A stretch of DNA of 29,731 bases from the IMG/VR virus record IMGVR_UViG_3300002488_000005, positions 1-29,731 of that record; one strand, given 5' to 3'. Source of the stretch: a virus. The notes beneath the pieces were generated by a model. It was given only the letters and a program-made list of their open reading frames with translations. It searched no databases and was not told the DNA's origin. Positions 16 through 22,098 of this stretch are shown piece after piece. Positions within the stretch are counted from its first letter, which is position 1, and each line of letters begins with the position of its first letter. The position numbers were made by a program, and so were the translations under genes.

Positions 16-44
16 TTGACAAATAATATGATATATGTTATAAT
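16..44 (+). promoter_or_regulatory. Sigma70-type promoter with extended -10
   Basis: A perfect TTGACA (16-21) is followed after exactly 17 nt by a perfect TATAAT (39-44), with TG at 36-37 giving an extended -10. It lies 25 nt upstream of the ATG at 69 and should drive the phosphomannomutase operon. Two other intergenic promoters in the window (9092 and 12081) have the same architecture. Such a strong host-type promoter suggests early transcription by unmodified host RNA polymerase; that timing is inferred. Confidence 0.88.
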
Positions 45-68: not shown

Positions 69-872
69 ATGATAAAGAAACATATTGTATTATTTGATAT
101 GGATGGTACTTTAACTGAACCTAGAATGCCATTTCAAAAAAAGTTACTGGGTCCATTAAGAAAATTATCAGCAAATGCTGAAATAGGAATACTCACAGGT
201 TCTGATTTTGACTATTTACATCAACAAATGAACCTAATAATCAGATTTTCTGAGTTGAGATTTGTTACGCACTTGTTGCCATGTAATGGAACAAAACACT
301 ATTACCCTCCAAGACTCCCTGATGACGTTTATAAACTCATTCATGAAATGAATATGGAGACTTTCTTAGGAAAGAATTGTTATAAGCAATTGATAATGTT
401 ATTATCTAGCGGCCAAGAAGAAATGTGTCATTACGATTTCCCACTAACAGGACATTTTATCTCCTGTAGGGGCTCAATGGTTAACTGGTCTCCGGTTGGC
501 AGAAATGCAACTACCGAACAGAGACAGCAGTTTATTGAGTGCGACTTGTCATATTCTCCTTCCCTTAGAGAGCGTGAAATAAACAAACTAAAGTATCGAA
601 TAAATCTTAGGTGTGCTAAAAATGTAACCGTAAAATTAGGAGGCGAAACATCATTTGATATTTATCCTACTGGATGGGACAAGACCTATGCACTAAGGCA
701 CTTTCCTGAGCATATTTGCTGGTTTGTTGGTGATAGATGTGGTCCTAATGGCAATGACAAGGAAATTTATGATCTTTTATCGCAGGAAAACCGTGCATAT
801 TGCACTAAGGACCCCGACAACACAGTTGAAATAATACAAGATATAATCAGGAGAATTGGTAATGGTGAGTGA
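69..872 (+). CDS. Eukaryotic-type phosphomannomutase (HAD superfamily)
   Basis: Predicted to interconvert mannose-6-phosphate and mannose-1-phosphate, the step before GDP-mannose. The start carries the HAD motif DMDGT, with D10 as expected nucleophile and D12 as acid/base. It is followed by ILTGSD, by the family signature RGSMVNWSPVGRN in the cap region (human PMM2 has a closely similar GMLNVSPIGR stretch), by TSFDIYPTGWDK, and by the metal-binding GDRCGPNGND near the C-terminus. The length of 267 residues is close to eukaryotic PMM (about 250). This differs from the alpha-D-phosphohexomutase fold (ManB/AlgC) usual in bacteria. The ATG at 69 follows a strong promoter. The gene overlaps the next one by 11 nt. 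It probably feeds the sugar genes downstream (GDP-mannose epimerase-like 18385, GT15-like 19382). Confidence 0.9.
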   Translation: MIKKHIVLFDMDGTLTEPRMPFQKKLLGPLRKLSANAEIGILTGSDFDYLHQQMNLIIRFSELRFVTHLLPCNGTKHYYPPRLPDDVYKLIHEMNMETFLGKNCYKQLIMLLSSGQEEMCHYDFPLTGHFISCRGSMVNWSPVGRNATTEQRQQFIECDLSYSPSLREREINKLKYRINLRCAKNVTVKLGGETSFDIYPTGWDKTYALRHFPEHICWFVGDRCGPNGNDKEIYDLLSQENRAYCTKDPDNTVEIIQDIIRRIGNGE

Positions 873-1236
873 AATCGAAGTCGTCAAAATGATCTCAGAT
901 CTTATTAAGAACGGTATAAGTTTGGATGGTAAAAACATTTTTGAATGCAACCTCTTTATGAAGGACTTGAATCATTTTTTGAACACCGAGACAACCTTGA
1001 GTGCTCACTACTCTGGGGGCAAAATTACTATCGAATCAATTTTTTTTGATCCTCTATTATCTGTTGAGTTAGAAAAAAGCACTCTCCAATGTATTCCAAT
1101 TACTGATGAGGGGTGGATGGATGCTGTCTATGAGATTTTGAAATTTATCCACATCAGGAAAATTGAGGAATTAGAAAAACAACAACAAGCCAAAAAAAAG
1201 GAAGAAGAAAATAACAAAGAGTTTGATTGGATTTAG
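862..1236 (+). CDS. Hypothetical protein
   Basis: A 124-residue protein of unrecognised family. The ATG at 862 is preferred over an upstream TTG at 856 because AGGAG at 849-853 lies at the right distance. The start overlaps the end of the phosphomannomutase gene, so translation is probably coupled. The C-terminal third is a charged, probably helical tail rich in Lys, Glu and Gln (about residues 100-120). No signal peptide or membrane segment is seen. The last base of its TAG stop is also the first base of the tRNA-Arg, so processing of the tRNA would cut at the very end of this coding region. Confidence 0.75.
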   Translation: MVSEIEVVKMISDLIKNGISLDGKNIFECNLFMKDLNHFLNTETTLSAHYSGGKITIESIFFDPLLSVELEKSTLQCIPITDEGWMDAVYEILKFIHIRKIEELEKQQQAKKKEEENNKEFDWI

Positions 1237-1385: not shown

Positions 1386-1403
1386 ATTTATTTGGAGAGA
1401 ATT

Positions 1404-1727
1404 ATGAAAATATTTTACCTAAGAAGAGAAGAAGATGAAAGCGGAATAAGCGGTACTGGTAGAGTGGCTCAAGGTTTCGTCTTTGATAATGGAAAGGTGG
1501 CAGTGACATGGCTCTCTGAGCACCCTTCTGTTACAATTTATGACAACATTGGAGAAGTTCACGCTATCCATGGCCATGGAGGCAAGACAACAGTAGAGTT
1601 CGAACCAGACTACAAAAGAGCTTGCAATGAACTCAAATCATTTATTGATAATTTTTCTTTACCTGATTTAGCTAAAGACAAACTACCAACAGAGGGCGCT
1701 GCGGCGAAATTGATTTTTAAAAACTAA
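1404..1727 (+). CDS. Conserved phage-type small hypothetical protein
   Basis: A 107-residue soluble protein. The ATG at 1404 is chosen because GGAGAG at 1394-1399 is correctly placed; an in-frame TTG at 1392 would overlap that site. The central part reads like a compact beta-rich module: GTGRVAQGFVF, then VAVTWLSEHPS, then TIYDNIGEVHAIHGHGGKT. I associate this pattern with small uncharacterised proteins in phages and bacteria, but no function is known to me. The remaining residues form a hydrophilic tail. It follows the tRNA and hairpin and precedes an HNH endonuclease gene. Confidence 0.7.
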   Translation: MKIFYLRREEDESGISGTGRVAQGFVFDNGKVAVTWLSEHPSVTIYDNIGEVHAIHGHGGKTTVEFEPDYKRACNELKSFIDNFSLPDLAKDKLPTEGAAAKLIFKN

Positions 1728-2237: not shown

Positions 2238-2660
2238 ATGAAAAGAGTACCAACAATTGCTGTTAGCGGTGGTTTTGATCCCATCCACAAAGGTCACGTA
2301 CAGATGATCAGGGAGGCTGCTGAATATGGCAATGTCATTGTGTTTTTGAATTCTGATGAGTGGTTAGTAAGAAAAAAAGGATTTAATTTTATGTCCTTTG
2401 AAGAAAGGGCCTACATTGTTGGTAGCATAAAGGGCGTGGCAATTGTGAGCAATGTTGATGACTCCGAAGGCACAGTTTGTTCTGCTCTGCGCAGATTCAA
2501 GCCCGACTATTTTGCAAATGGTGGCGATCGAGTAGCTAAAAATACACCCGAGATGGACACTTGTGAAGAGATTGGCATAACAATGTTGTGGAATGTCGGC
2601 GGAGGAAAGATACAGTCTTCTTCTGATTTAGTTAAGAAAGTAAAAGGAGTGAAGGGATGA
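2238..2660 (+). CDS. Small nucleotidylyltransferase (cytidylyl/adenylyltransferase family)
   Basis: A 140-residue protein matching the short cytidylyltransferase-like fold of glycerol-3-phosphate cytidylyltransferase and of the RfaE/HldE adenylyltransferase domain. The nucleotide-binding motif GGFDPIHKGH contains H17 and H20. It is followed by VIVFLNSDEW, FEERAYIV, KPDYFANGGDR and a C-terminal QSSSDLV in the position of the family ISSTxI motif. It would couple a CTP- or ATP-derived nucleotide to a small phosphorylated substrate. The substrate cannot be read from sequence; a sugar phosphate would fit the surrounding pathway. ATG 2238 has AAGGAG at 2228-2232. The fold is not that of GDP-mannose pyrophosphorylase. 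Confidence 0.82.
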   Translation: MKRVPTIAVSGGFDPIHKGHVQMIREAAEYGNVIVFLNSDEWLVRKKGFNFMSFEERAYIVGSIKGVAIVSNVDDSEGTVCSALRRFKPDYFANGGDRVAKNTPEMDTCEEIGITMLWNVGGGKIQSSSDLVKKVKGVKG

Positions 2661-2911
2661 AAAAAGAATTTGATTTCACAACAATGGAGTTATTGATGCA
2701 AAAGCTAGAGAACGATAATAATCCTGAGTTGAAAAAGGTAGTTAATGATTTGATATTAGGATCTAAAAAAGCCGGTACAATTGGCTTAGACATGAAAGAG
2801 GTTGCTAGTATTTGTACATTGGGCTGGGTAGTCTCCCAGCAGCCGGAGCTAGAATCACTAATGGAGTTTCTGCTTAGTAAGACTGTTCCAAAGGATGAGT
2901 TTTTGAATTAA
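2657..2911 (+). CDS. Hypothetical protein
   Basis: An 84-residue protein that starts inside the end of the preceding gene (ATGA overlap), so it is probably translationally coupled. It is predicted to be mainly helical, with repeated Leu/Glu/Lys patterns and one more hydrophobic stretch near ASICTLGWVVSQQ. There is no signal peptide or recognisable catalytic motif. It is the last gene before a strong terminator and so closes the first transcription unit. Function unknown. Confidence 0.72.
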   Translation: MKKEFDFTTMELLMQKLENDNNPELKKVVNDLILGSKKAGTIGLDMKEVASICTLGWVVSQQPELESLMEFLLSKTVPKDEFLN

Positions 2912-2925
2912 AGTGAAATAAAGAT

Positions 2926-2952
2926 AAAGGGAGGCTAAAAGCCTCCTTTTTT
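2926..2952 (+). terminator. Rho-independent terminator
   Basis: GGAGGC (2930-2935), a TAAAA loop (2936-2940) and GCCTCC (2941-2946) form a GC-rich stem that A-U and G-U pairs extend outward, followed by TTTTTT (2947-2952). It sits between the stop of the gene ending at 2911 and the large acidic protein starting at 2991, separating two transcription units. Confidence 0.95.
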
Positions 2953-7140: not shown

Positions 7141-8466
7141 ATGGCTAAGAAAAATTACGTTATTGATACTTCAGTGTTTCTATCAGATGCTGATGCATTG
7201 TTTTCTTTTGGGAACAATGATGTGTTTATTCCCTTGAAAGTTCTTGAAGAGGTCGATAATCACAAAAAACGCCAAGATTCAGTTGGCTTTCACGCAAGAA
7301 AAATAATCAAACATCTTGACGGTCTTCGTGAGAAAGGCTCTCTGGTAAAGGGAATAAGACCAGAACAAGGCAAAGGAATTATTAAGGTCTGCGACCATAA
7401 CTTTGAAGGAATATCCAAGAACTCATTGGACTTGGCAGTGCCAGACCACATTATTTTGTCTGCGGCATTATGTGTTCAAGATAAGTGGCCTAAGCGAAAG
7501 ACCATTGTTGTTTCACGTGATATAAACATGCGTGTCATTGCAAACTCTTTGGGACTTGAATCTGAGGACTACGAAACACTACAGGCCGTTGAAGACGCAG
7601 ATAAATTGTACGATGGGTTCACAGAGATTCTAGTTGATGATCAGATTATTGATCACTTTTATGCTGGTGAAGAAATTATCTTAGACGAGGAGCAGGGAGT
7701 ACAACTCTATCCAAATCAGTTTCTTATGCTTCAATCGTCCGCTAACCCCAAAAAAACTGCACTTTGTCGTTTCAATGCATCTCACTTACCCCTAAAACCA
7801 ACCTTGCAAAAATGGCCTGAAATTAGCTGGGGAATCAAACCTCGCAATAAAGAGCAAGCCTTTGCATTTGACCTGCTTTTTGATGATAATATTCCTCTGG
7901 TGACTCTAATCGGTAAGGCCGGATCAGGAAAAACCCTAATGGCGATCGCTGCTGCAATGGAACAGTGTTTAGGAATGGGACAAAAGAAATATAAAAAGAT
8001 TATAATCTCCAGACCAGTACAGCCTCTCGGAAAGGACATTGGATTCCTTCCGGGCACAATGGAAGAAAAGATGTTGCCTTGGTTAAAGCCGATTCAAGAC
8101 AATCTACAAATGGTTGTTGGTCACGATAGAACTATGCTCCAAGGATTTATGGAGAAAGGTAAACTGGAAGTTGAGGCTCTGACATACATTCGTGGTCGCT
8201 CGATCTCCAACGCTTTTGTTATTATTGACGAAGCCCAGAATCTCACAGCGCACGAGGTCAAGACAATTATCACAAGGATTGGAGACAACACCAAGATTGT
8301 TTTGACTGGAGACGTTGAGCAGATTGATAATATTTACACAAACGAAACAAGCAACGGTTTGGCATTTGCTGTCGAAAAGTTCAAGACATATGACTTGTCT
8401 GGGCACATAACGTTTAAGCGAGGAGAAAGGAGCAAATTAGCAACTTTGGCCTCAAAGATACTATAG
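7141..8466 (+). CDS. phoH: PhoH-like ATPase with N-terminal PIN domain
   Basis: A 441-residue two-domain protein. Residues 1-150 form a PIN nuclease domain: VIDTSVFLSD with acidic D9, the VLEEVDNHK helix, and ISRDINMR-type VVSRDINMR. Residues about 235-441 form the PhoH P-loop ATPase with Walker A GKAGSGKT (258-265), Walker B FVIIDEAQ (D363, E364) and LTGDVEQID as sensor region. PIN-PhoH (PhoH2-type) proteins have been described as RNA helicase/RNases, and phoH genes are widespread in marine phages; the role in phage infection is unsettled. The start lies one base after the stop of the acidic protein gene, with GAGAGGA inside that gene as ribosome-binding site, so the two are probably co-translated. 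Confidence 0.95.
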   Translation: MAKKNYVIDTSVFLSDADALFSFGNNDVFIPLKVLEEVDNHKKRQDSVGFHARKIIKHLDGLREKGSLVKGIRPEQGKGIIKVCDHNFEGISKNSLDLAVPDHIILSAALCVQDKWPKRKTIVVSRDINMRVIANSLGLESEDYETLQAVEDADKLYDGFTEILVDDQIIDHFYAGEEIILDEEQGVQLYPNQFLMLQSSANPKKTALCRFNASHLPLKPTLQKWPEISWGIKPRNKEQAFAFDLLFDDNIPLVTLIGKAGSGKTLMAIAAAMEQCLGMGQKKYKKIIISRPVQPLGKDIGFLPGTMEEKMLPWLKPIQDNLQMVVGHDRTMLQGFMEKGKLEVEALTYIRGRSISNAFVIIDEAQNLTAHEVKTIITRIGDNTKIVLTGDVEQIDNIYTNETSNGLAFAVEKFKTYDLSGHITFKRGERSKLATLASKIL

Positions 8467-10590: not shown

Positions 10591-11856
10591 ATGACAAAAA
10601 AAATAAAAGTATTAACATTAGGCGACCATCCACTGTCGCCTTCTGGCGTTGGTTCGCAAACGAAATACATTTGCGAAGCACTGCTAAAATCAGGTAAATT
10701 TGAAATTATTTCACTTGGGGGAGCAATCAAGCATTCTAGCTACGAACCGGTTAAAATTGAGCCATATGGCGATGATTGGAGAGTAATACCGATTGACGGA
10801 TATGGAACACCAGAAATGATTAGGTCCGCACTCAGAACAGAAAAACCAGATATTTTGTGGTTCATGACTGACCCTAGATTTTATGAGTGGTTGTGGGTAA
10901 TGGAAAATGAAATCCGTCCATTGGTCCCCATGGTGTATTATCACGTTTGGGATAACTATCCATATCCATATTTCAATAAGAAGTATTATGATTCAAATGA
11001 TGCAATTTTTACTATTTCAAAAGTAACAGATGACATTGTGAAAACAGTATCTCCTACTGTGAGATCTAAATATATTCCACACGCAGTTGATTCAGACATT
11101 TTTAAAACCCTTACTGCTACCGAGAAACAGCAGGTAAGAGAACAACTATTACCAAAAGAAGATTGGGACAAAACAATATTTTTCTGGAATAATAGAAATG
11201 CTCGTCGAAAACAATCTGGTACACTTATTCATTGGTTTGCGGAATGGATTCAAAGCACCAACAACCAAAGTAATGCACAATTGATAATGCACACAGATCC
11301 AGCAGATCCTCATGGTCAAGACCTTAGTCATATTATTGAACATTTGGGTCTTGAAAACAGAGAAGTTCTAATCTCCAAAGACAAAGTAGCACCAGAACAA
11401 TTAGCTACAATGTATGGCATGTCTGACTGTACTATCAATATTTCCGACGCAGAAGGGTTTGGGCTGGCAACACTAGAATCACTATCGTGCGGGGTTCCAA
11501 TTATTGTGAATATGACTGGTGGCCTACAAGAACAGGTCACAGATGGCATTGAATGGTTTGGAATCGGACTCGTACCCACATCAAAGTGTATAATTGGTTC
11601 GCAACAAGTTCCATACATTTACGAAGACAGAACAAGTAAAAAACAGTTCTTCAATGCGCTGAACAAGATAATGGCACTTGGCAATGAAGGTCGCCGTGAA
11701 ATGGGCTTAAAGGGCCGTGAGCATGTTCTCAAGAATTATAACTTTACTGACTTCAATAATTCGTGGGTTGATGCAATGCAAAAGATTTATATCGAAGAAG
11801 GTTCTTGGGAAAATAGAGCCAACTATAGCAAAATTAGATTCAAAGAAGTGGCATGA
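10591..11856 (+). CDS. GT4-type glycosyltransferase
   Basis: A 421-residue GT-B glycosyltransferase of the group 1 (GT4) type. The N-terminal half begins with the acceptor-domain pattern LTLGDHPLSPSGVGSQTKYI. The C-terminal donor domain has NISDAEGFGLATLESLSCGVPII, containing the conserved E-x7-E motif, and GREHVLKNYNF near the end. The sugar donor cannot be read from the sequence. ATG 10591 has GGAG at 10582-10585. It belongs to the transcription unit starting at 9092, and lies upstream of the main sugar cluster with only one small gene and a promoter between. No signal peptide or membrane segment is seen. Confidence 0.88.
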   Translation: MTKKIKVLTLGDHPLSPSGVGSQTKYICEALLKSGKFEIISLGGAIKHSSYEPVKIEPYGDDWRVIPIDGYGTPEMIRSALRTEKPDILWFMTDPRFYEWLWVMENEIRPLVPMVYYHVWDNYPYPYFNKKYYDSNDAIFTISKVTDDIVKTVSPTVRSKYIPHAVDSDIFKTLTATEKQQVREQLLPKEDWDKTIFFWNNRNARRKQSGTLIHWFAEWIQSTNNQSNAQLIMHTDPADPHGQDLSHIIEHLGLENREVLISKDKVAPEQLATMYGMSDCTINISDAEGFGLATLESLSCGVPIIVNMTGGLQEQVTDGIEWFGIGLVPTSKCIIGSQQVPYIYEDRTSKKQFFNALNKIMALGNEGRREMGLKGREHVLKNYNFTDFNNSWVDAMQKIYIEEGSWENRANYSKIRFKEVA

Positions 11857-12132: not shown

Positions 12133-13344
12133 ATGAAAAAGAAAATTTTTGTAAGGGGGCCGGTTCTGTCCCAAAGCGGTTATGGTGAACAATCCCGTTT
12201 TGCACTAAGAGCACTAAGATCAAGAGAAGACTTATTTGATATTTATATCCAACCGATCAATTGGGGTCAAACTGGGTGGGTTTGGGAGAATGACGAATTC
12301 AGAAATTGGATGGATTCTAAAATCACATTGACGCAAATCCTAATTCAAAAGAAGGAGCTACAACCAGACATTAGTCTACAGGTTACAATTCCAAATGAAT
12401 TCCAGAAAATATGCCCAATTAATATCGGTTACACTGCTGGAATTGAGTCGGACAGGGTTGCACCTGTTTGGCTACAGAAAGGCAATGAAGAGGTTGATAA
12501 AATCTTAGTTGTATCGAACCATGCAAAAACGACATATGAAAGTACGAAAGTGCAAGCTAAAAATAGTCGCACTGGGGAGACTATTCCATATTCACTAAAT
12601 AGGCAAGTTGATGTTGTCTGGGAGACAACACCGACATCTGAACCAGAACCAATTCACGAAATGAAATTGGATTATGATAATAACTTCCTTATTGTTTCGC
12701 AAATGGGTCCAAGGAAAAATTTTGAAAACTCAATAAGGTGGTTCGTCGAAGAGTTTATTGACCAAGAAGTTGGCTTGGTTATCAAGACCAACATCAAAGC
12801 TAATTCCATCACCGACTGGGACCATCTTCAAAAGAGAATGAAGAATATTCTTGCCCCCTATAGTGAGCGTAAATGTAAAGTTTACGTTCTTCATGGTGAT
12901 TTAACTTCCGGTCAAATGACTTGGTTGTATAATCATAACAAGATCAAGGCTCTTGTCAACATCTCACATGGCGAGGGCTTTGGTCTTCCTTTATTTGAAG
13001 CAGCCAGAGAGGGACTACCAGTTGTAACTGTTGGGTGGTCTGGGCAGCTAGATTTTTTACATCATGATGGCAAAGACTACTTCCAGTCTGTTGAGTACAC
13101 AATGCAGCCTATTCAACAACAAGCGGTCTGGGACGGGGTTCTTGATAGAGAGTCAATGTGGGCATATGCCAATCAAGGCAGTTATAAAATGACCCTTCGT
13201 AAAACGCTCAAAAACTGGTCAAAATGCAAAGAAACGGCAGTTGAGCTATCATCTATCATAAAAGACAAATTCAACGAAGAAAAGCTATTTGCGGGCTTCT
13301 GTGAAGCAATCTACAACCCAGATTCGGATATAGTTATTTTATAG
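12133..13344 (+). CDS. GT4-type glycosyltransferase
   Basis: A 403-residue GT-B glycosyltransferase and first gene of the sugar cluster. The N-terminus FVRGPVLSQSGYGEQSRFAL is a typical acceptor-domain start. The donor domain has NISHGEGFGLPLFEAAREGLPVV with the E-x7-E pattern, preceded by FLIVSQMGPRKNFENSI, the usual linker into the second Rossmann domain. The length fits GT4. ATG 12133 follows AGGAG (12116-12120) at a rather long spacing of 12 nt. The donor and acceptor are unknown. It is related in pattern to the gene at 10591, and the two may be ancient paralogues. Confidence 0.9.
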   Translation: MKKKIFVRGPVLSQSGYGEQSRFALRALRSREDLFDIYIQPINWGQTGWVWENDEFRNWMDSKITLTQILIQKKELQPDISLQVTIPNEFQKICPINIGYTAGIESDRVAPVWLQKGNEEVDKILVVSNHAKTTYESTKVQAKNSRTGETIPYSLNRQVDVVWETTPTSEPEPIHEMKLDYDNNFLIVSQMGPRKNFENSIRWFVEEFIDQEVGLVIKTNIKANSITDWDHLQKRMKNILAPYSERKCKVYVLHGDLTSGQMTWLYNHNKIKALVNISHGEGFGLPLFEAAREGLPVVTVGWSGQLDFLHHDGKDYFQSVEYTMQPIQQQAVWDGVLDRESMWAYANQGSYKMTLRKTLKNWSKCKETAVELSSIIKDKFNEEKLFAGFCEAIYNPDSDIVIL

Positions 13345-13355
13345 GAAGCCAATAA

Positions 13356-14399
13356 ATGAATGAGTTCATAAGATGCAATCTCTTTAGCGATAAAGCATTC
13401 AAAGTGCAAGATAGATTTGTTGTCAAACAAAAAGAACTAGTTCTCGACAGAGAGTTGACAAATGGTAAGTCAAGTTTTAATAAGGCAATAATTGATTATA
13501 AGTGTCAATGGCTAAGGCAAAACGATTGGCAGACAAGGCCAACTTTCATAATACCAATCAGAGATAGTTCTGAATTATTGCAGATAACAATAAAGAATTT
13601 TCAAGAGCACGGCATTGATAAATTATTCAATATAATTGTTGTTGACGATCGTTCAATTGAGGACATCAAGAAAATTACAATCATGAACAATTTATCTTAC
13701 CTGAGAATTGATAATGACAAAGGTTTCAATTTTTCAATGCTAAACAATATACCATGCAAAATTTGCTTTGAATTGGGAGTTGAAACGGTTATTTTCTGGA
13801 ATGCTGATTTGTGGCATGCTAAGAAAGCGTGGTTTTTAGAGTTGCTTGAAAGGCACTACCGGGACAAGTCAGTAGTTTCAGGTAGCAAGTTACTATACCC
13901 ACCAGCATCGATGTCGCTTTGTGGTGAAGACGACACAGCGAATATAAAAGAAAACTTTAAAACAAAATTAGGCGACTGGAGAGAGACAGTTCAATTTGGA
14001 GGAGACGGCTGGATTGCTATTGCCGAAAGAGACAGTATGCTCATTTATACGCCGTGCCACTCGTTACGATTTCAAAAGGCAGATAATCCAAGAGTGAATT
14101 GCGATAGAGGGAGTTTATTTGTAACTGGTGCGCTTCATGTTTGGAATTTAGAGGCTTTTATACAATTGGGAGGCTTTAACCCAACATTGTCTAAAAATTT
14201 TCAAGATAGTGACATTTGTTTGCGCCTATATAAGGGCGGAATCTGTCCCATGTATTATGGTAAAGATATTTTCTTTTATCATGATGAGTCTGCTGTTTTG
14301 AGTAAATATAACAAAAAAGATAAACAATTTCGAAGTGACGAAATCATCTTTTATAAACTATGGGATAAAAAACTACAGGAAATGATTTATGGATTATAG
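13356..14399 (+). CDS. GT2-like glycosyltransferase
   Basis: A 347-residue protein whose glycosyltransferase domain (GT-A fold, family 2-like) starts at about residue 65. Motifs are TFIIPIRDSSELL, IIVVDDRSIED for nucleotide binding, FWNADLW in the DxD position, a GGFN loop and FQDSDICLRLYKGG, the acceptor-side motif of rhamnosyltransferase-like GT2 enzymes. The first 65 residues form a charged extension that I do not recognise. The metal-binding motif is the variant N-A-D rather than D-x-D. It overlaps the RmlB-like dehydratase gene by 11 nt, consistent with coupled translation and a shared sugar pathway. Confidence 0.82.
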   Translation: MNEFIRCNLFSDKAFKVQDRFVVKQKELVLDRELTNGKSSFNKAIIDYKCQWLRQNDWQTRPTFIIPIRDSSELLQITIKNFQEHGIDKLFNIIVVDDRSIEDIKKITIMNNLSYLRIDNDKGFNFSMLNNIPCKICFELGVETVIFWNADLWHAKKAWFLELLERHYRDKSVVSGSKLLYPPASMSLCGEDDTANIKENFKTKLGDWRETVQFGGDGWIAIAERDSMLIYTPCHSLRFQKADNPRVNCDRGSLFVTGALHVWNLEAFIQLGGFNPTLSKNFQDSDICLRLYKGGICPMYYGKDIFFYHDESAVLSKYNKKDKQFRSDEIIFYKLWDKKLQEMIYGL

Positions 14400-15381
14400 A
14401 ATATTAGTAACAGGCGGCGCCGGTTTTATAGGACATCAAGTAATTTACAGATTGTTGAAAGATACAGATTATGATGTGGTCACAATTGACCGCTTAGATA
14501 CCTCTGGAAACCTAAACAGGATTCAGGAAGTCTTAGATGTAAACCCGGAATGGAAAAAAAGGTTTAGCTTTCATTGGCATGACTTAAAAGCCCCTATAAA
14601 CGAAACACTTAGAAAACAAATCGGAAAAATAACTCACGTTATACATTTAGCTGCCGGTTCTCACGTTGATCGCTCTATTGAAGATCCAATGTCTTTTGTT
14701 ATGGATAATGTTGTTGGTACGACAAATGCCCTTCTTTATGCAAAAGAGCTAGATGATCTTAAGATGTTTATTAACTTCTCCACCGACGAAGTATTTGGTC
14801 CCGCTCCAGAGGGTGTGGCCTATAAGGAATGGGACAGATATAACAGTGGTAACCCATATTCCGCTTCCAAGGCAGGCGCAGAAGAAATGTGTTTGGCATT
14901 CTGTAACACTTATAAAATGCCCATTGTTACAACGCACACAATGAACGTTTTTGGAATCAGACAACATCCAGAAAAATACATTCCCCTTTTGATACAAAAG
15001 ATTCGTGACGGAGAAACAGTAACAGTTCACTCGAACAAAGAAAAGACAAAAGCCGGATCCAGATTTTACATCAACACAGATGATGTTGCTGACGCTATTT
15101 TGTTTTTACTTGAGAACGCTGTAGTTGGCGACAAATACAACATTGTGGGTGAACAAGAGGTTGATAATTTAGAATTAGCAAACATGGTCTCAAAAATCAT
15201 GAATAAGCCATTGAAATACAAAATGGTTGATTTTCATTCATCAAGGCCGGGACATGACTTGCGCTATGCTCTGTGTGGTGAAAAAATGAAAAGTCTTGGC
15301 TGGACTCCAAAAGTGCCTGTACAAAAAAGGCTAAAGGAGGTTGTTTGTTGGACTCTTGATAATCAAAGGTGGCTAAAGTGA
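14389..15381 (+). CDS. RmlB-like NAD-dependent sugar nucleotide 4,6-dehydratase
   Basis: A 330-residue extended SDR, most like dTDP-glucose 4,6-dehydratase. It has NAD-binding GGAGFIG (9-15), the RmlB-type AAGSHVDRSI stretch, STDEVFG with the dehydratase-specific D133-E134 pair, and the catalytic Y157-SAS-K161. It would form a 4-keto-6-deoxy sugar nucleotide, the first committed step toward deoxy sugars. The usual partners RmlA, RmlC and RmlD are absent from the window, so the substrate and downstream steps must come from the host or from elsewhere in the phage. ATG 14389 lies within the end of the preceding gene. A relative acting on another nucleotide sugar (UDP or GDP) cannot be excluded. 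Confidence 0.85.
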   Translation: MDYRILVTGGAGFIGHQVIYRLLKDTDYDVVTIDRLDTSGNLNRIQEVLDVNPEWKKRFSFHWHDLKAPINETLRKQIGKITHVIHLAAGSHVDRSIEDPMSFVMDNVVGTTNALLYAKELDDLKMFINFSTDEVFGPAPEGVAYKEWDRYNSGNPYSASKAGAEEMCLAFCNTYKMPIVTTHTMNVFGIRQHPEKYIPLLIQKIRDGETVTVHSNKEKTKAGSRFYINTDDVADAILFLLENAVVGDKYNIVGEQEVDNLELANMVSKIMNKPLKYKMVDFHSSRPGHDLRYALCGEKMKSLGWTPKVPVQKRLKEVVCWTLDNQRWLK

Positions 15382-16067
15382 AAAATAAAAATGTAGTTTA
15401 TACTGCGATCTATGGCAACAAGGATACACTTAAGGACCCGCTGTATAATAATAGCGACTATGACTATGTTTGCTACACAGACAATAAAGACATAAAATCA
15501 AAAGTTTGGAAAGTTATTTACCATGAACCAATTAGTAAAGATCCTGTTAGGAGTGCAAAAATCTTCAAGGTCAAGCCCCACGAATTTTTGAAAGATTATG
15601 ATCTTAGTATTTGGGTGGATGCAAATTTTTTGATTTGCTCTGATTTGGGCGGATTTACAAGTCGATTTGGGGATCAAGCAAACATCTTAACATTTCAACA
15701 TGACCAAGGCAGGAATTGTATTTATGATGAGGCCAAGGTTGTTACTAGATTCAATAAGGACAACCCAGAAATTGTTAGTGCCCAAATGAAGAAATATAGA
15801 ACAGAACAGTATCCCGAACAAAATGGCTTAACAGCAAATTCTATTTTACTGAGGAGGCACAATAAAACGGATGTTATTGAGCTAATGAATTTTTGGTGGA
15901 ATGAGATTGAAAACCACAGCAGAAGAGACCAGCTAAGTTTTTGCTATAGTAAATGGAAATTGAAGACAAAAATGTTTATGCTAAAGTACCCAAACTACAA
16001 CATAAGATTAAATGAGTGGTTCCGTTGGTTACCGCACAACTACGAATCTCAACCATGGGAGTTATAA
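15378..16067 (+). CDS. TOD1/MUCI70-like (DUF616) glycosyltransferase-like protein
   Basis: A 229-residue protein with the pattern of the DUF616 (PF04765) family. VVYTAIYGNKDTLKDPL is followed by YDYVCYTDNKD, DPVRSAKIFKVKPHEFL, YDLSIWVDANF in the DxD position, and a C-terminal QLSFCYSKWK segment. Plant members (TOD1, MUCI70) and bacterial relatives are regarded as glycosyltransferases or related enzymes. GTG 15378 is preferred because AAAGGTGG lies just upstream and the start overlaps the previous stop (GTGA). GTG 15369 is possible but would have no ribosome-binding site. The sugar donor is unknown. Confidence 0.75.
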   Translation: MKNKNVVYTAIYGNKDTLKDPLYNNSDYDYVCYTDNKDIKSKVWKVIYHEPISKDPVRSAKIFKVKPHEFLKDYDLSIWVDANFLICSDLGGFTSRFGDQANILTFQHDQGRNCIYDEAKVVTRFNKDNPEIVSAQMKKYRTEQYPEQNGLTANSILLRRHNKTDVIELMNFWWNEIENHSRRDQLSFCYSKWKLKTKMFMLKYPNYNIRLNEWFRWLPHNYESQPWEL

Positions 16068-16780: not shown

Positions 16781-17441
16781 TACAGCAGATTTATTATCAA
16801 CCAGAATAGAGGAAATTGAATTGCCTCCAAAATACCTTGAGTTGTGGAATGGGATCAATTACCCAATCCAAAAAAGAAAAGCATCCAATTTCAGATTAGA
16901 TGAAAACGAAAAAGAAATAATCTTGAACAAACTTTCCAAAAGAGCATTTTTCCTTACAACGATCGCTGAGTATTTCAAAGCAAAAAATATTGTAGAAGTA
17001 GGAACAGCAGAAGGTTGGCAATTCTTTAGCTTCGCTGAATACTGCAAAAATGTTGATGGCAAGGTATGGAGTTGTGACATTGACGACAGAAGAAGCCAAA
17101 AGTACACAAAAGAGTATAAAGACACTGCGACTTTTGTTCTGGGTGACAGTAAAAAATTAGCAGAAGAGATAATTCAAAACGGAACTAAAATTGATTTATT
17201 TTATATCGATGGATCACACGACAGAAATGCTGTATTAAGAGATGTAAGTAACTTGAAGAGCATACAAAACCCAGATTCAACTCCTGTTTGGATTTTTGAT
17301 GATTATGATGAACGTTTTGGGTGTTATCATGACATTTCATTGATATTGAAGTCTGCCCCAAGTTATTTTGTTTATTCGCCCGGCAAGACAGCTAGTGGCA
17401 ACCCAACGCATCAGGCAATTATGAGAGGATTTTTTAGGTGA
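16773..17441 (+). CDS. SAM-dependent methyltransferase (class I), probably sugar O-methyltransferase
   Basis: A 222-residue class I methyltransferase resembling the Methyltransf_24 / macrocin O-methyltransferase group. Motif I is IVEVGTAEG (73 onward), followed by SCDIDD for SAM ribose binding and DLFYIDGSHDRNAVLRD (D146-H149), the characteristic metal-associated motif of that group. IFDDYDERFGCY is the next conserved block. In the middle of a glycosyltransferase cluster it most likely methylates a sugar hydroxyl, for example to cap a glycan. It overlaps both neighbours by 4-8 nt. Confidence 0.85.
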   Translation: MVNTADLLSTRIEEIELPPKYLELWNGINYPIQKRKASNFRLDENEKEIILNKLSKRAFFLTTIAEYFKAKNIVEVGTAEGWQFFSFAEYCKNVDGKVWSCDIDDRRSQKYTKEYKDTATFVLGDSKKLAEEIIQNGTKIDLFYIDGSHDRNAVLRDVSNLKSIQNPDSTPVWIFDDYDERFGCYHDISLILKSAPSYFVYSPGKTASGNPTHQAIMRGFFR

Positions 17442-18385
17442 AAATTTTATTTTTTGAAAGAAACCATGGCAATTCTTATTCCTATTATAATGAAATAAGA
17501 AATGCACTTGGACGCATGAACACTGTTTATCAATTTGGAAAATGGTCTCCAATAGGAGGACCGGAAATACATATTAATGATGTATTGAGCCTGTGCCCGC
17601 AAAAGCCGGATATAATTTTGTTTGGATTCGGATGGACAGATTGTTCTGAAAATTACCCCAAGCAAGTCAAAGGTCTCGACGCATGCAAAATCCCAGTCGC
17701 TGTGATCCTAAACAAAGAATATGCAGCATTAGATAAAAAACTTGATTGGATAAAGAAGATGAAACCGGAAGTAGCTTTTTGTGTTCATCATGATTATGAT
17801 GAGTATTCAAAAGTAACTGGTGTTCCGTTTTATCAAATTCCCTTCGCAGTTAATCCAAAAATATTTAAAAAGTATGATAATGAAGAGTATGATTGTGATT
17901 TTGGTTTTTCTGGTGTTATCAGACCAGAGCAAACAGAAGATTGGAGAGCTAAAATTGTCGAGAAGAGCAGCCAATGGTCTGACATTGAGTTTTCATTCTC
18001 GCAGCATCGACATGACTCTCTGGAATCTTACGCCAGAAGACTCAACAGATCAAGAGCATGGCTAAGTACAACAGGTCCAGCAGACCTTGTTGGGACAAGG
18101 TATTACGAAGTTATGGCCTTGGGCACTACTTTGCTCGTGTGCAATAGGTTTGATAGAGTTTACGATGGCCTATTTGAAGAAAATAAGCACTGTGTCATGT
18201 TCAGTTCTATCGAAGAATTAGAAGAAAAGATAAAATACTATTTGAAAAACCCAACAGAGATGAAGACTATTATTGACAATGCTATGAAACACACTTTAGA
18301 GAATCACACTTGGGACCACAGAGCGGAAAAAATCACAAAAATTCTGAAGGATGTGGCCTTTGAAACCAAAACAGGAGAATTGTAA
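17438..18385 (+). CDS. CgeB-like glycosyltransferase
   Basis: A 315-residue GT-B-type protein of the Glyco_trans_1_2/CgeB-like group. It has a Rossmann-like N-terminus with KPDIILFGFGW. Its donor-domain core is CDFGFSGVIRPEQ followed by STTGPADLVGTRYYEVMALGTTLLV, the equivalent of the RxxEixAcG motif of that group, and ends with EELEEKIKYYLKNPTEM and HTWDHRAEKI. GTG 17438 overlaps the previous stop (GTGA) and has AGAGGA at 17424-17429. The sugar is unknown. Confidence 0.82.
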   Translation: MKILFFERNHGNSYSYYNEIRNALGRMNTVYQFGKWSPIGGPEIHINDVLSLCPQKPDIILFGFGWTDCSENYPKQVKGLDACKIPVAVILNKEYAALDKKLDWIKKMKPEVAFCVHHDYDEYSKVTGVPFYQIPFAVNPKIFKKYDNEEYDCDFGFSGVIRPEQTEDWRAKIVEKSSQWSDIEFSFSQHRHDSLESYARRLNRSRAWLSTTGPADLVGTRYYEVMALGTTLLVCNRFDRVYDGLFEENKHCVMFSSIEELEEKIKYYLKNPTEMKTIIDNAMKHTLENHTWDHRAEKITKILKDVAFETKTGEL

Positions 18386-19392
18386 TGAAAAAAGCATTAG
18401 TATGCGGCGCAGGTGGCTTTATTGGTGGTCACTTGGTTAAGTTTCTGAAATCCAAAGGATATTGGGTTCGTGGGGTTGATTTGAAGCAGAACGAATTTCA
18501 AGACATTCATACAATCGCAGATGAGTTTTGTGTAGGCGACTTAAGAGATCCAAAATTTGTTCGTTCTGTCATCGACACAGGCATGGATGAAATTTATCAA
18601 CTAGCAGCCGATATGGGAGGGGCAGGTTTTGTCTTTACTGGTGAGAATGACGCCGATATTATGCACAACTCTGCACTGATTAATTTGAATGTTGCTTATG
18701 AGGCGTGTAAGAAGGGCGTAGGGAGAGTGTTCTATTCATCATCCGCCTGCATGTATCCAGAGCACAATCAGATGGATTCTGATAATCCCAATTGTATCGA
18801 AAGTAGCGCTTACCCTGCAAATCCAGATTCAGAGTATGGCTGGGAAAAACTATTCTCTGAAAGAATGTTTTTATCTTTTATGAGAAATAAAGGCCTTGAG
18901 GTTAGAGTTGCAAGGTTTCATAATATTTTTGGCCCTTACGGAACATGGACAGGTGGACGTGAAAAGGCCCCTGCTGCATTTTGTAGAAAAGTTGCCGAAG
19001 CTCCTGAGGGGAGTTCTGTTGAAATATGGGGTCCCGGAACACAAACTCGTTCGTTTTTGTATGTAGATGAGTGTGTTGAGGCAACGTATAGATTTATGCA
19101 TTCTGATTTTGAAGGACCAGTCAACATTGGCTCTGAAGAGATGATTTCGATGAATGATTTTGCTAAAATGATTATTGAGATAGCCGGAAAAGATCTGTCA
19201 ATTTACAACATTCAAGGAAAGGAATTTGAGGAAAAGTACGGGCACAAGTGCCCTGTTGGCGTGAATGGTAGAAATTCTGATAACGCCCTATACAAAAAGA
19301 TGGTTGGTTGGGTTGTATCTGAGCCTTTGCGTGATGGAATTGTAAAAACCTACAAATGGATTGAAAATGAGGTTAATAAAGATGAAAGCTAA
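18385..19392 (+). CDS. GDP-mannose 3,5-epimerase-like enzyme
   Basis: A 335-residue extended SDR that closely follows plant GDP-mannose 3,5-epimerase, which makes GDP-L-galactose and GDP-L-gulose from GDP-D-mannose. Motifs are GAGGFIG, AADMGGAGF, SSSACMYPE with C122, YGWEK with Y151 and K155, FHNIFGPYGTW, GGREKAPAAF with K194, QTRSFLYVDECVE and NGRNSDN. The spacing C122-Y151-K155-K194 equals that of the Arabidopsis catalytic residues as I recall them (C145, Y174, K178, K217). It is slightly shorter than the plant enzyme (about 377), mainly at the N-terminus. It overlaps both neighbours and is followed by a mannosyltransferase-like gene. A related epimerase on another GDP-sugar is the main alternative. 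Confidence 0.9.
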   Translation: MKKALVCGAGGFIGGHLVKFLKSKGYWVRGVDLKQNEFQDIHTIADEFCVGDLRDPKFVRSVIDTGMDEIYQLAADMGGAGFVFTGENDADIMHNSALINLNVAYEACKKGVGRVFYSSSACMYPEHNQMDSDNPNCIESSAYPANPDSEYGWEKLFSERMFLSFMRNKGLEVRVARFHNIFGPYGTWTGGREKAPAAFCRKVAEAPEGSSVEIWGPGTQTRSFLYVDECVEATYRFMHSDFEGPVNIGSEEMISMNDFAKMIIEIAGKDLSIYNIQGKEFEEKYGHKCPVGVNGRNSDNALYKKMVGWVVSEPLRDGIVKTYKWIENEVNKDES

Positions 19393-20260
19393 GCACAATG
19401 CTTGTATAGCAATTTTAAGTGCAAGAAAAGAAATGTTACCAACTTGTTTGAAAAACTTTTCACTTTATCATCCTTGTGACTATGATCTTTACGTCTATCA
19501 ATTTGGAAACATCTATACAGATGATGATAAAGAGAAGGTTATAAATAGTTATTCCGGAAAAGTTACATTTGTTACAATACATCCTAAAGTCCCCCCTCAC
19601 TTGAGTGAGGTTGATCTATTTTATAATAGAACGTATAACCAGTATGCTCGTTTTGAGTTTCCCAAATCTAGAACAAATTATTTACATATGTGTAATTTTT
19701 TGACTTGGGAGTTGTTTGAAAGGCAAGAGTTGAGTAGTTATGATTATATAATAAGATTTGATGACGACTCTTGGTTCAAAAAGAGCTTTGGTTTTGATGT
19801 CGTCGATAAATTTATAGAAGAAGAGAGTAAAAGAAATGGTGAGTTATTTTGCATTAATTCATATTTTTGGGGAATGAACGAGCAGTTCAACCCAAGACAT
19901 TCTCAAACTAGAGAAAATTTATTTAATTTTGTAAAGTCATATGTTGAATCTAATGAGGTTTGCCCAAAGAGTTCAAGTCTTAGGAGAGCTATTGATGACA
20001 ATGATGAAATTGCTTTCCACAAAATGGGATGGAAGTCAGATTTATCTGTTTGGAAAAACGGCTTTCAATATCATGAAAATTGGATAAATTGGGTTGATCG
20101 CATAAGAAAGCATGGAGGCATCTACAAGCATAGGTGGGGATGTTGCGAACTACATCATCTTTATGGCTACATGTATTATAAGGACGGTGTTCATAACATG
20201 AATCTAAAAGAACAACAACTATATGATGGGCATTTGCCAAATTTTTACATTATAAGATAG
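19382..20260 (+). CDS. GT15-like (Kre2/Mnt1-type) glycosyltransferase
   Basis: A 292-residue protein whose pattern recalls the GT15 alpha-1,2-mannosyltransferases of fungi. An early NYLHMCNFLTWELF block is followed by YDYIIRFDDDSWF (DxD position) and INSYFWGMNE. A C-terminal block NWINWVDRIRKHGGIYKHRWG-CCELHH corresponds to the family's GGFFYERWGDAPVH region. GT15 enzymes use GDP-mannose, which fits the phosphomannomutase and the adjacent GDP-mannose epimerase. ATG 19382 is preferred because GAGG at 19369-19372 is correctly placed; an in-frame ATG at 19361 lies deeper in the previous gene. No membrane anchor is seen, unlike the Golgi enzymes. The family call needs a profile search. Confidence 0.62.
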   Translation: MKAKHNACIAILSARKEMLPTCLKNFSLYHPCDYDLYVYQFGNIYTDDDKEKVINSYSGKVTFVTIHPKVPPHLSEVDLFYNRTYNQYARFEFPKSRTNYLHMCNFLTWELFERQELSSYDYIIRFDDDSWFKKSFGFDVVDKFIEEESKRNGELFCINSYFWGMNEQFNPRHSQTRENLFNFVKSYVESNEVCPKSSSLRRAIDDNDEIAFHKMGWKSDLSVWKNGFQYHENWINWVDRIRKHGGIYKHRWGCCELHHLYGYMYYKDGVHNMNLKEQQLYDGHLPNFYIIR

Positions 20261-20273
20261 AGGAGATTGAAGA

Positions 20274-21221
20274 ATGAAAATAAATAAATGTTGCGTCATT
20301 GGCGCAAACGGCTTTATAGGATTTGAGATAGTGAATTATTTACTTTCTAAGGGCGATGAGGTGACTTGTTTTGATGTTGACACGAGTAGAAAGGAAGCGC
20401 ATGGTAATTTGAGGTTTGAAAGTTTAGACATTACAAATAGAAAAATGTGCTTTGATAAGTTGAAAAATTTTGACGAAGTTTACAATTGTGCTGGTGTTTT
20501 AGGAACTTCTGAATTGAACGAAATGATTACAACTGCTGTGAAGGTCAATGTCATAGGATGTTTGAATGTTTTTGATGCTTGTAACAATAATAAAATACCG
20601 AGAGTATTTTATCCATCTAAGCCAAACCCTTGGCTCAACACCTACACGATAACAAAAGAAGCATCAGAAAAATTTTCACAAATGTACAATGAAAAGAGCA
20701 ACACTACCAAAATAATTTCTATGAGGTGGTTCAATGCTTTTGGTCCACACCAGCATACACACCCAGTCCGAAAAATAGGCCCCACATTCAGCTTATTGGC
20801 TAAAGAAAGATTGCCAATTGAGATATTTGGTTCCGGCGATAATGTTGTAGACATGATAACCGCAAAAGATATTGCTAAATGGTCTGTCGAAGCAACCAGA
20901 CACAATTTTTGGGAAGAGGTGTATGATCTCGGAAGAGGAGTGCCTGTGACTGTTAAGCAATTTGCAAAAGATATTAATAAAATTTCTGGTAACAAGTCGG
21001 GAGTTAGTTTTGTTAGAATGAGAGAAGGAGAGGATGAAGACACTATTCTAGTCGCAGACATTTCTGAACTAAGAAAGCGATTTGCTGAAAATGGAATTGA
21101 AATGGTATTTGAAGACTATCAAAAAAGTCTGAAAGAGATGTATGATTTTTACGCTTCAATACCAGACACAAAGCGACACGAGATATTATCTTTTCATGGT
21201 TTTGGAGTTTCTAATGGCTAG
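20274..21221 (+). CDS. NAD-dependent nucleotide-sugar epimerase/dehydratase (extended SDR)
   Basis: A 315-residue extended SDR with GANGFIG (10-16), an NCAGV motif, the catalytic Y124-TIT-K128, MRWFNAFGPHQ for substrate binding and FGSGDNVVDMITAKDIA, the usual motif before the C-terminal domain. It belongs to the UDP-glucose/UDP-GlcNAc 4-epimerase-like set. The stretch before the catalytic Tyr is short and Pro-rich (YPSKPNPWLN) and lacks the usual SSxxVYG serine run, so the substrate may be unusual. It is separated from the preceding gene by 13 nt with its own AGGAG site and overlaps the next SDR gene by 8 nt. Confidence 0.85.
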   Translation: MKINKCCVIGANGFIGFEIVNYLLSKGDEVTCFDVDTSRKEAHGNLRFESLDITNRKMCFDKLKNFDEVYNCAGVLGTSELNEMITTAVKVNVIGCLNVFDACNNNKIPRVFYPSKPNPWLNTYTITKEASEKFSQMYNEKSNTTKIISMRWFNAFGPHQHTHPVRKIGPTFSLLAKERLPIEIFGSGDNVVDMITAKDIAKWSVEATRHNFWEEVYDLGRGVPVTVKQFAKDINKISGNKSGVSFVRMREGEDEDTILVADISELRKRFAENGIEMVFEDYQKSLKEMYDFYASIPDTKRHEILSFHGFGVSNG

Positions 21222-22098
21222 ATGTTTAGTAACAGGACATAAGGGATTTATTGGTTCTAGGCTTTATAGGAAACTAAAAGAGGATGGCCATGAAGTATTA
21301 GGTATAGATATAAAGGACGGCCCTTCTAGAGATATTTTGAACTGCTTGAAGGAGGACGTTGATGGGTCTTTTGAATCTTTATTTTGGGATTTCAAACCTG
21401 AATTTATTTTTCATCTGGCTTGTATACCTAGAGTAGCTTATAGTGTTGAAAATCCTGTTCAAACGATGAAAAATAATGTTATTATAACAACATATGTTCT
21501 TAACTTTGCCAAAAAAGTAGGAGCTAAAAGGGTGATTTATTCTGGGTCCTCTTCTGTGGTCGGTAATGGCGACGGCCCTAATAGCCCATATGGACTTCAA
21601 AAGCTAATCTCAGAGATGGAGTGTAAATTATATTCTGATTTATACGATTTGGATACTGTTTCTTTGAGATACTTCAATGTCTATTCTGAAAACCAGACAG
21701 TAGACGGCCCATATGCTACTGCTATTGCAAACTGGATGCATTATATCAGAATTGGCAAGACGCCATTCATCACAGGGACAGGAGAGCAAAGAAGAGATAT
21801 GGCTTATGTTTGGGATGTTGTTGATGCTAACATTTTTGCAATGAAATACAAAAACAAATTCAATGGACAACATTATGATGTGGGGACTGGCGAGAACATC
21901 TCTCTCAATGAAGTAAAGACGATAGTGAAAAAATATCACGATATAGACTTTGTGTATGTAGAGGAAAGAAAAGGCGATGTTTTGTTAACAAAAGCTAACA
22001 TCGAGCCTTTATTACGAATAGGGTGGAAAGCAAAAACTAATTTACAAAGCGGAATTGATAAATGTTTCCGCTTCAAAATAAAAGATAATAGGAGTTAA
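21214..22098 (+). CDS. NAD-dependent nucleotide-sugar 4-epimerase-like (extended SDR)
   Basis: A 294-residue extended SDR with TGHKGFIG (7-14), HLACIPR, the serine run SGSSSVVG, catalytic Y126-GLQ-K130, RYFNVYSEN and RRDMAYVWDVVDA. These features are typical of UDP-GlcNAc/UDP-Glc 4-epimerases. ATG 21214 is chosen over in-frame starts upstream because GGAG lies at 21204-21207 and the Rossmann strand begins directly after it. It closes the sugar cluster; the next gene starts two bases later. Its presence directly after a second SDR suggests successive steps on one nucleotide sugar or two alternative donors. Confidence 0.86.
   Translation: MARCLVTGHKGFIGSRLYRKLKEDGHEVLGIDIKDGPSRDILNCLKEDVDGSFESLFWDFKPEFIFHLACIPRVAYSVENPVQTMKNNVIITTYVLNFAKKVGAKRVIYSGSSSVVGNGDGPNSPYGLQKLISEMECKLYSDLYDLDTVSLRYFNVYSENQTVDGPYATAIANWMHYIRIGKTPFITGTGEQRRDMAYVWDVVDANIFAMKYKNKFNGQHYDVGTGENISLNEVKTIVKKYHDIDFVYVEERKGDVLLTKANIEPLLRIGWKAKTNLQSGIDKCFRFKIKDNRS

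What the first reader, a model, noticed from the sequence alone, without database searches (positions are those of the whole stretch)
69..872. Eukaryotic-type phosphomannomutase in a phage
The gene has the PMM1/PMM2-type HAD architecture (DMDGT, the SMVNWSPVGRN cap signature, GDRCGPNGND) and not the alpha-D-phosphohexomutase fold normal in bacteria. A phage making its own mannose-1-phosphate implies dependence on mannose-derived sugars. The enzyme type points to transfer from a eukaryotic or unusual bacterial source.
Basis: partly seen in the sequence, partly recalled or inferred. Interest (0 to 1): 0.7.

Follow-up and report, generated by a model that had tools for sequence, protein, structure and literature searches.

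The report
Phage phosphomannomutase in mannose-activation module
A large marine phage carries a real animal/fungus-type phosphomannomutase, and across dozens of related phages this enzyme travels with two partners that together look like a complete viral route from fructose-6-phosphate to an activated mannose, built with a different last enzyme from the one cells use.

Summary
Window 69-872 is an intact PF03332 phosphomannomutase (E 1e-31); its predicted fold is closest to mammalian PMM2, and all catalytic and substrate-binding residues checked are present. The inference of transfer from a eukaryote does not: 62 distinct viral homologues form a broad group of their own, sampled eukaryotic PMMs are one tight clade outside it, and direction is unresolved.

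The gene is not alone. It starts a predicted transcription unit (perfect sigma-70 promoter 16-44, terminator 2926-2950) that also encodes a small HldE/TagD-type nucleotidyltransferase (2238-2660). That enzyme is the commonest neighbour of viral PMMs (39/62 loci) and is present in 25/26 PMM-bearing virus records. In other phages it abuts, or is fused to, a type II mannose-6-phosphate isomerase domain (20 of 66 distinct loci fused, in both domain orders), sometimes near GDP-mannose dehydratase genes. The canonical GDP-mannose pyrophosphorylase fold (PF00483) was not found in 26 PMM-bearing marine phage records. The window also has a GDP-mannose 3,5-epimerase and many glycosyltransferases.

Best reading: a phage isomerase-mutase-nucleotidyltransferase pathway to GDP-mannose, with a non-orthologous last enzyme. 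Substrate and nucleotide are inferred, not assayed. This also argues that abundant viral manA is anabolic.

The parts
16..44 (+). promoter TTGACA-17-TATAAT with TG before the -10 box, 24 bases upstream of the PMM start codon
   Evidence: 12 of 12 consensus matches; at least 11/12 before the PMM gene in 19 of 61 relatives, 1 of 61 after shuffling
69..872 (+). phosphomannomutase (PF03332, HAD IIB cap)
856..1236 (+). uncharacterised ORF overlapping the end of PMM (TTG 856 as listed; an ATG lies a few bases further on)
   Evidence: ORF list; no Pfam hit; 62% identical copy in L002
1236..1312 (+). tRNA-Arg (tct)
1392..1727 (+). conserved small protein, 94% identical in L002
1735..2235 (+). HNH endonuclease, lies between PMM and nucleotidyltransferase in close relatives
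   Evidence: PF01844 6.6e-16
2238..2660 (+). HldE/TagD-type nucleotidyltransferase, proposed mannose-1-phosphate nucleotidyltransferase (AAGGAG upstream of ATG 2238)
   Evidence: PF01467 3.4e-12; Foldseek best Fom1 CyTase, HldC, TagD; linkage
2657..2911 (+). small conserved ORF, last of the predicted unit
2926..2950 (+). intrinsic terminator
   Evidence: RNA fold -17.1 kcal/mol, z -3.7
10591..11856 (+). GT4 glycosyltransferase
   Evidence: PF00534 2e-12
12133..13344 (+). GT4-like glycosyltransferase
13356..14399 (+). GT2-like glycosyltransferase
   Evidence: PF00535 2.8e-5
14389..15381 (+). SDR closest to dTDP-glucose 4,6-dehydratase
   Evidence: PDB 9.7e-52; TIGR01181 253.7 bits, below its 365.1 cut-off
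15369..16067 (+). TOD1/MUCI70-type glycosyltransferase
   Evidence: PF04765 1.4e-19
17438..18385 (+). glycosyltransferase (Glyco_trans_1_2)
   Evidence: PF13524 9.6e-22
18385..19392 (+). GDP-mannose 3',5'-epimerase
   Evidence: PDB 2c59 (GDP-mannose-3',5'-epimerase) 1.3e-88; next family 5e-23; 58% identical to the S-SCSM2R protein
19379..20260 (+). GT15-like (alpha-mannosyltransferase family) glycosyltransferase
   Evidence: PF01793 8.4e-9
20274..22098 (+). two further SDR nucleotide-sugar epimerase/dehydratase genes (20274-21221, 21214-22098)
   Evidence: PF01370 1.6e-29 and 7e-46

Best explanation
The gene encodes a working alpha-phosphomannomutase that turns mannose-6-phosphate into mannose-1-phosphate. 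It is one step of a phage-encoded mannose-activation pathway: a cupin (type II) mannose-6-phosphate isomerase makes Man-6-P from Fru-6-P; this PMM makes Man-1-P; and the small HldE/TagD-type nucleotidyltransferase of the same transcription unit couples Man-1-P to a nucleotide, most likely GTP, giving GDP-mannose in place of the ManC pyrophosphorylase. The product feeds the window's GDP-mannose 3,5-epimerase and the glycosyltransferases, for glycosylation of virion or host surface (target unknown). Shown by sequence and structure prediction: the enzyme classes, linkage, co-occurrence and fusion. Inferred: reaction direction, the nucleotidyltransferase's sugar and nucleotide, and the final glycan.
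For: PMM identity. Every PMM2 residue checked that binds substrate or acts in catalysis (D12, D14, R123, N128, R134, R141, S179, D181, K189) is kept in the window protein and in 61-62 of 62 viral PMMs, whereas N128 and R141 are changed in the alpha-PGM-like bacterial and Acinetobacter-phage proteins. Linkage: the nucleotidyltransferase is the commonest neighbour, 39/62 distinct loci, always on the same strand; the next family is in 20/62. It abuts PMM upstream (L056, L060, L071, L088, L102) or downstream (L070). It is in 25/26 PMM-bearing records including cyanophages S-SSM7 and P-TIM68, although only 34 of 50,697 phage records hold a relative. Fusion: 20 of 66 distinct nucleotidyltransferase loci fuse it to a PF01050 mannose-6-P isomerase domain, one of them (L146) in reversed order; 8 more have the isomerase gene abutting. 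GDP-mannose 4,6-dehydratase and GDP-fucose-synthase-like SDR genes lie nearby (L151, L168, L135). PF01050 is in 12/17 larger PMM-phage contigs. No PF00483 in G000-G007, G009-G025, S-SSM7 or P-TIM68. GDP-mannose 3,5-epimerase in the window.
Against: No enzyme was assayed. The nucleotidyltransferase superfamily mostly makes ADP- or CDP-products, and its nearest curated family is ADP-heptose synthase, far below its cut-off (51.5 of 181.5 bits). The window's own 78.6 kb fragment has no PF01050 isomerase. Nucleotidyltransferase contigs without a nearby PMM, among them those with fusions, lack PF03332 (0/21), so all three activities are not seen in one fused locus, though L008, L052, L054, L065, L068 and L073 have all three genes within about 3 kb. 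GDP-mannose 3,5-epimerase was found in only 1 of 24 PMM contigs. Some loci have no nearby nucleotidyltransferase (17 of 49 with at least 4 kb downstream). The PMM2 Q177 position varies (E in the window).
Confidence: 0.72

Rival explanations
1. Heptose route: the PF03332 mutase and the HldE-like nucleotidyltransferase activate a manno-heptose (heptose-7-P to heptose-1-P to NDP-heptose) rather than mannose.
For: The nucleotidyltransferase's best curated family is the heptose-1-phosphate adenylyltransferase domain and HldC is among its closest structures; manno-heptose has the mannose configuration at the ring (general knowledge).
Against: Only 1 of 24 PMM contigs has a strong GmhA-type SIS_2 isomerase, two more are marginal. 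The isomerase that is fused or adjacent is the ManC-type mannose-6-phosphate isomerase domain, and GDP-mannose dehydratases are neighbours. HldE works on the beta anomer while PMM makes the alpha anomer (general knowledge).
Confidence: 0.12
2. Catabolic or phosphatase role: viral isomerase and PMM drain mannose phosphates into Fru-6-P and the pentose phosphate pathway for dNTPs, or the PMM acts mainly as a sugar phosphatase.
For: This is the published reading of viral manA (PMC4053976; repeated in PMC9602691). Human PMM1 has a phosphatase side activity (general knowledge).
Against: Consistent pairing with a sugar nucleotidyltransferase, fusion of that domain to the isomerase, glycosyltransferases and GDP-sugar enzymes nearby, and the S-SCSM1 isomerase gene lying beside GDP-mannose dehydratase, GDP-fucose synthase and GDP-mannose epimerase.
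Confidence: 0.1
3. Recent acquisition of a single eukaryotic PMM gene by this phage.
For: PF03332 is rare in bacteria: 1 of 150 Actinomycetota, weakly, and 1 of 14 control genomes. The best non-viral matches are PMM2.
Against: At least 62 distinct viral homologues, all of them phage or virus contigs. Sampled eukaryotic PMMs are one clade, 100/100, not containing any viral row.
Confidence: 0.06

Closest known systems
Eukaryotic phosphomannomutase PMM2/PMM1 (PF03332; PDB 9hn3, 7o0c, 2fuc)
   Same: Fold, DMDGT nucleophile loop, cap substrate residues, GGxxSFD and GND motifs; about 31-35% identity.
   Different: Separate viral clade; GGSD loop is TGSD; Q177 replaced by E/D/S/N; phage operon with a nucleotidyltransferase.
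Lactococcus alpha-phosphoglucomutase (PDB 4bnd) and sphingomonad plasmid HAD-IIB proteins
   Same: PF03332 superfamily in bacteria.
   Different: Lack N128, P131, R134 and R141 equivalents; separate clade 100/98.
ManC/AlgA bifunctional mannose-1-P guanylyltransferase / mannose-6-P isomerase (TIGR01479)
   Same: The C-terminal PF01050 isomerase domain is the one fused or next to the phage nucleotidyltransferase; same proposed pair of reactions.
   Different: The pyrophosphorylase domain (PF00483) is replaced by a smaller HldE/TagD-type domain (PF01467).
HldE C-terminal domain / HldC / TagD / Fom1 cytidylyltransferase
   Same: Fold and HxGH motif of the window nucleotidyltransferase.
   Different: Own conserved signature (SGGFDPxHxGH, KKxxxFM, GGDRxxxNTPE, KxQSSS); far below family cut-offs; linked to mannose genes.
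Marine viral manA (mannose-6-phosphate isomerase) AMG, PMC4053976 and PMC9602691
   Same: Viral mannose phosphate enzyme, widespread in the ocean.
   Different: Reported as a carbon-metabolism (catabolic) gene; PMM and the nucleotidyltransferase partner are not mentioned in the passages read.

Membership tests
PF03332 phosphomannomutase (PMM1/PMM2 type) | Profile match above gathering cut-off over most of the length | tested here: met
   110.9 bits against 22.4, residues 30-260; 42/42 viral members
PF03332 phosphomannomutase (PMM1/PMM2 type) | HAD nucleophile and acid/base aspartates plus cap residues R123, N128, R134, R141, S179, D181 | tested here: met
   assignment of these residues to substrate binding is from general knowledge of PMM1/PMM2 structures
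PF03332 phosphomannomutase (PMM1/PMM2 type) | Three-dimensional fold with PMM-type cap | tested here: met
   AF2 pLDDT 96.3; top 24 PDB matches are PMM family, TM-score up to 0.87 by target length
PF03332 phosphomannomutase (PMM1/PMM2 type) | Mutase activity on Man-6-P / Man-1-P | not testable with these tools
   needs purified enzyme
HldE/HldC heptose-1-phosphate adenylyltransferase (for 2238-2660) | Curated equivalog score (TIGR02199 cut-off 181.5 bits) | tested here: not met
   51.5 bits
HldE/HldC heptose-1-phosphate adenylyltransferase (for 2238-2660) | Cytidylyltransferase-like fold with HxGH | tested here: met
   PF01467 3.4e-12; Foldseek HldC E 2.7e-8
ManC/AlgA type II PMI-GMP (module as a whole) | PF00483 NTP_transferase domain | tested here: not met
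   absent from PMM-bearing marine records and from 20/21 NTase contigs
ManC/AlgA type II PMI-GMP (module as a whole) | PF01050 isomerase domain joined to the nucleotidyltransferase | tested here: met
   fusions in L164, L168, L184, L146 and others; not in the window's own fragment
GDP-mannose 3',5'-epimerase (18385-19392) | Closest to known GME rather than other SDRs | tested here: met
   1.3e-88 against 5e-23 for the next family; SSACMYPE and YGWEK motifs visible in the sequence

The most novel reading that the evidence does not exclude
Phages evolved their own GDP-mannose pathway whose last enzyme is a mannose-1-phosphate nucleotidyltransferase of the cytidylyltransferase fold, unrelated to ManC, and the phosphomannomutase of that viral pathway belongs to the lineage from which eukaryotes obtained PMM1/PMM2.
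Probability: 0.1. Interest if true: 0.85.

Novelty: new variant of a known kind. Interest (0 to 1): 0.6.

Why it matters
Viral manA was reported in all Pacific Ocean viromes, at frequencies its authors call similar to psbA, and explained as mannose catabolism. The fusion and linkage of that isomerase to a sugar nucleotidyltransferase, and the linkage of that enzyme to PMM, point to the opposite direction: phages making activated mannose for glycosylation. It also proposes a new, easily tested sugar-nucleotide enzyme, suggests functions for PHROG families now called unknown, heptose kinase or cysteine dioxygenase, and shows that the PMM1/2-type enzyme is widespread in marine phages, which matters for where the eukaryotic enzyme came from.

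Tried and rejected
Genome-contig scan for bacterial relatives gave only one remote HAD (Agreia, 24%). PF03332 in 150 Actinomycetota: 1 weak hit; other phyla could not be sampled for lack of a genome handle, so the bacterial side of the tree is thin. ManC-type pyrophosphorylase sought and not found. GmhA sought for the heptose rival. GDP-mannose 3,5-epimerase sought as a general partner of PMM: only the window has it among 24 PMM contigs, so it is not a constant part of the module. The large structural protein at 26184 gave no phage match, so taxonomy rests on the terminase. A base rate of the nucleotidyltransferase in comparable uncultured large contigs was not obtained (terminase relatives are mostly short fragments); the only base rate is from isolated phages. 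Literature searches found no paper on PMM as a viral auxiliary gene or on this nucleotidyltransferase in phages; the library is open-access only.

Full report
What is there. ORF 69-872 on the + strand is an intact 267-codon gene. Its best Pfam family is PF03332, phosphomannomutase, at 1e-31. Its best solved relatives are mammalian PMM2 proteins (4e-31). A model built from 42 viral homologues has pLDDT 96.3, and the first 24 PDB fold matches are all PMM family. Every substrate-binding and catalytic residue of PMM2 that I checked is kept in the window protein, and in 61-62 of 62 viral relatives. The bacterial members of the superfamily (Lactococcus alpha-PGM, sphingomonad plasmid proteins) and the Acinetobacter phage proteins lack several of them. 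The record is a 78.6 kb virus contig with a T4-type terminase nearest to Flavobacterium phage immuto at 47%; the host is not known.

Where it comes from. 135 IMG/VR contigs encode relatives; 84 loci reduce to 62 at 85% identity. In a tree with 7 eukaryotic PMMs, the bacterial group and cyanophage proteins, the viral rows are one side of a branch (77/84), the eukaryotes are one clade (100/100), and the bacterial group is apart (100/98). The window gene groups with L002 and other phages. Eukaryotes attaching to one viral subgroup is not rejected (AU p 0.18-0.22). Transfer from within sampled eukaryotes is thus not supported, but the direction of the ancient link is open. Eukaryotic sampling is small (animals, fungi, kinetoplastids; letters taken from PDB alignments, Lactococcus).

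What it sits with. A perfect sigma-70 promoter (16-44) lies just before the gene and a strong terminator (2926-2950) closes the unit. Promoters of at least 11/12 precede PMM in 19 of 61 relatives, against 1 of 61 after shuffling. Inside this unit is a CTP_transf_like nucleotidyltransferase, 2238-2660, modelled at pLDDT 92.2 and closest in fold to the Fom1 cytidylyltransferase domain, HldC and TagD. Clustering all neighbours of the 62 PMM loci, this nucleotidyltransferase is the commonest family (39 loci, always same strand; the next has 20). It occurs at varied distances and on either side, sometimes overlapping PMM by a few bases, so the pair has been kept through rearrangement. L006-L008 share only these two genes with the window. 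Searching whole records, 25 of 26 PMM-bearing viruses have it, including the isolated cyanophages S-SSM7 and P-TIM68, while only 34 of 50,697 phage records hold any relative of it.

The link to mannose. In L007/L008 the nucleotidyltransferase is followed at once by a PF01050 mannose-6-phosphate isomerase cupin; six distinct loci have all three genes close together. A reciprocal scan from the nucleotidyltransferase gave 66 distinct loci: 8 have the isomerase gene abutting and 20 have it fused in one protein of about 250 residues. Pfam confirms both domains (for example L164: PF01467 4e-14 and PF01050 2.5e-24), and L146 has the reverse order. The isomerase half carries what I know as hallmarks of the ManC C-terminus (ERxWGYYxVL, KVKELTVxPG, EIQYG...EEDIER; sequences). 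GDP-mannose 4,6-dehydratase genes (PF16363 at 1e-133 or better) lie nearby in L135, L151 and L168. PF01050 is present in 12 of 17 larger PMM contigs. PF00483, the domain of conventional GDP-mannose pyrophosphorylases, is absent from all PMM-bearing marine records searched and from 20 of 21 other nucleotidyltransferase contigs; the only phage record with both a PMM-like protein and PF00483 was Acinetobacter phage AB1I1M-1, whose PMM-like protein is of the alpha-PGM-like group. The window adds a GDP-mannose 3,5-epimerase (1.3e-88), a GT15-like glycosyltransferase and several others.

Mechanism proposed. Fru-6-P to Man-6-P by the cupin isomerase; Man-6-P to Man-1-P by the PMM of the window; Man-1-P plus NTP, probably GTP, to NDP-mannose by the HldE/TagD-type enzyme; then epimerases and glycosyltransferases. 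Enzyme classes, linkage, co-occurrence and fusion are results; direction, substrate, nucleotide and target are inference. GTP is favoured because the neighbouring and downstream enzymes (GDP-mannose dehydratase, GDP-mannose epimerase) use GDP-mannose. The phage that owns the window may still draw Man-6-P from the host, as no isomerase was seen in its fragment.

Against the known. Viral manA was reported in all Pacific Ocean viromes and read as mannose catabolism (PMC4053976), and again in cyanophage S-SCSM1 (PMC9602691), although in that phage the gene sits beside GDP-mannose dehydratase, GDP-fucose synthase and GDP-mannose epimerase. I found no report of PMM as a viral auxiliary gene and no fused NTase-isomerase protein in isolated phages or plasmids. 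PHROGs lists this PMM as unknown function, the nucleotidyltransferase as heptose kinase/adenylyltransferase and the isomerase as cysteine dioxygenase. The PMM alone is a new member of a known family; the module is a new variant of the GDP-mannose pathway.

Noticed in passing
window 2991-7139: 1382-aa protein with long D/Q/G low-complexity repeats and N-terminus MKLLLENWRNFINEE; similar N-termini occur at record 65432 and in L003, L004 and L005. Looks like a capsid-targeting leader of packaged head proteins; the body is hypervariable (25% identity in L002 while adjacent PhoH is 95%).
   Followed up: partly
record 29700-78617 (L009-L011) and L003-L005: Many small ORFs start with MK(I/L)TKxxLxxIIKEE(L/M), a shared N-terminal motif of unknown role.
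   Followed up: no
window 15369-16067 and 19379-20260: Glycosyltransferases of families named from plants (TOD1/MUCI70, PF04765) and fungi (GT15, PF01793).
   Followed up: partly
L014:5529-6747 (Acinetobacter phage Ab1-TPeters): An alpha-PGM-like PF03332 protein directly follows a CTP_transf_like nucleotidyltransferase, a possible parallel pairing in an unrelated phage.
   Followed up: partly
L104-L108 and 43 plasmid records: Alphaproteobacterial, mostly sphingomonad, plasmids carry alpha-PGM-like PF03332 proteins annotated HAD-IIB hydrolase; in Nitrobacter beside beta-phosphoglucomutase-family and phosphoketolase genes.
   Followed up: no
phrog_7851, phrog_7878, phrog_29277: PHROG names look wrong or empty here: 'cysteine dioxygenase' matches isomerase cupins, 'heptose kinase/adenylyltransferase' matches proteins without a kinase, and the PMM family has no function.
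   Followed up: yes
window 69-872 compared with L002: PMM is 64% identical between window and L002 although nearby genes (1392-1727, PhoH 7141-8466) are 94-95% identical: faster evolution or replacement of PMM.
   Followed up: no
Streptomyces phages such as TunaTartare and Jay2Jay, 25 records: A remote relative of the nucleotidyltransferase lies directly beside a glycosyltransferase gene.
   Followed up: no
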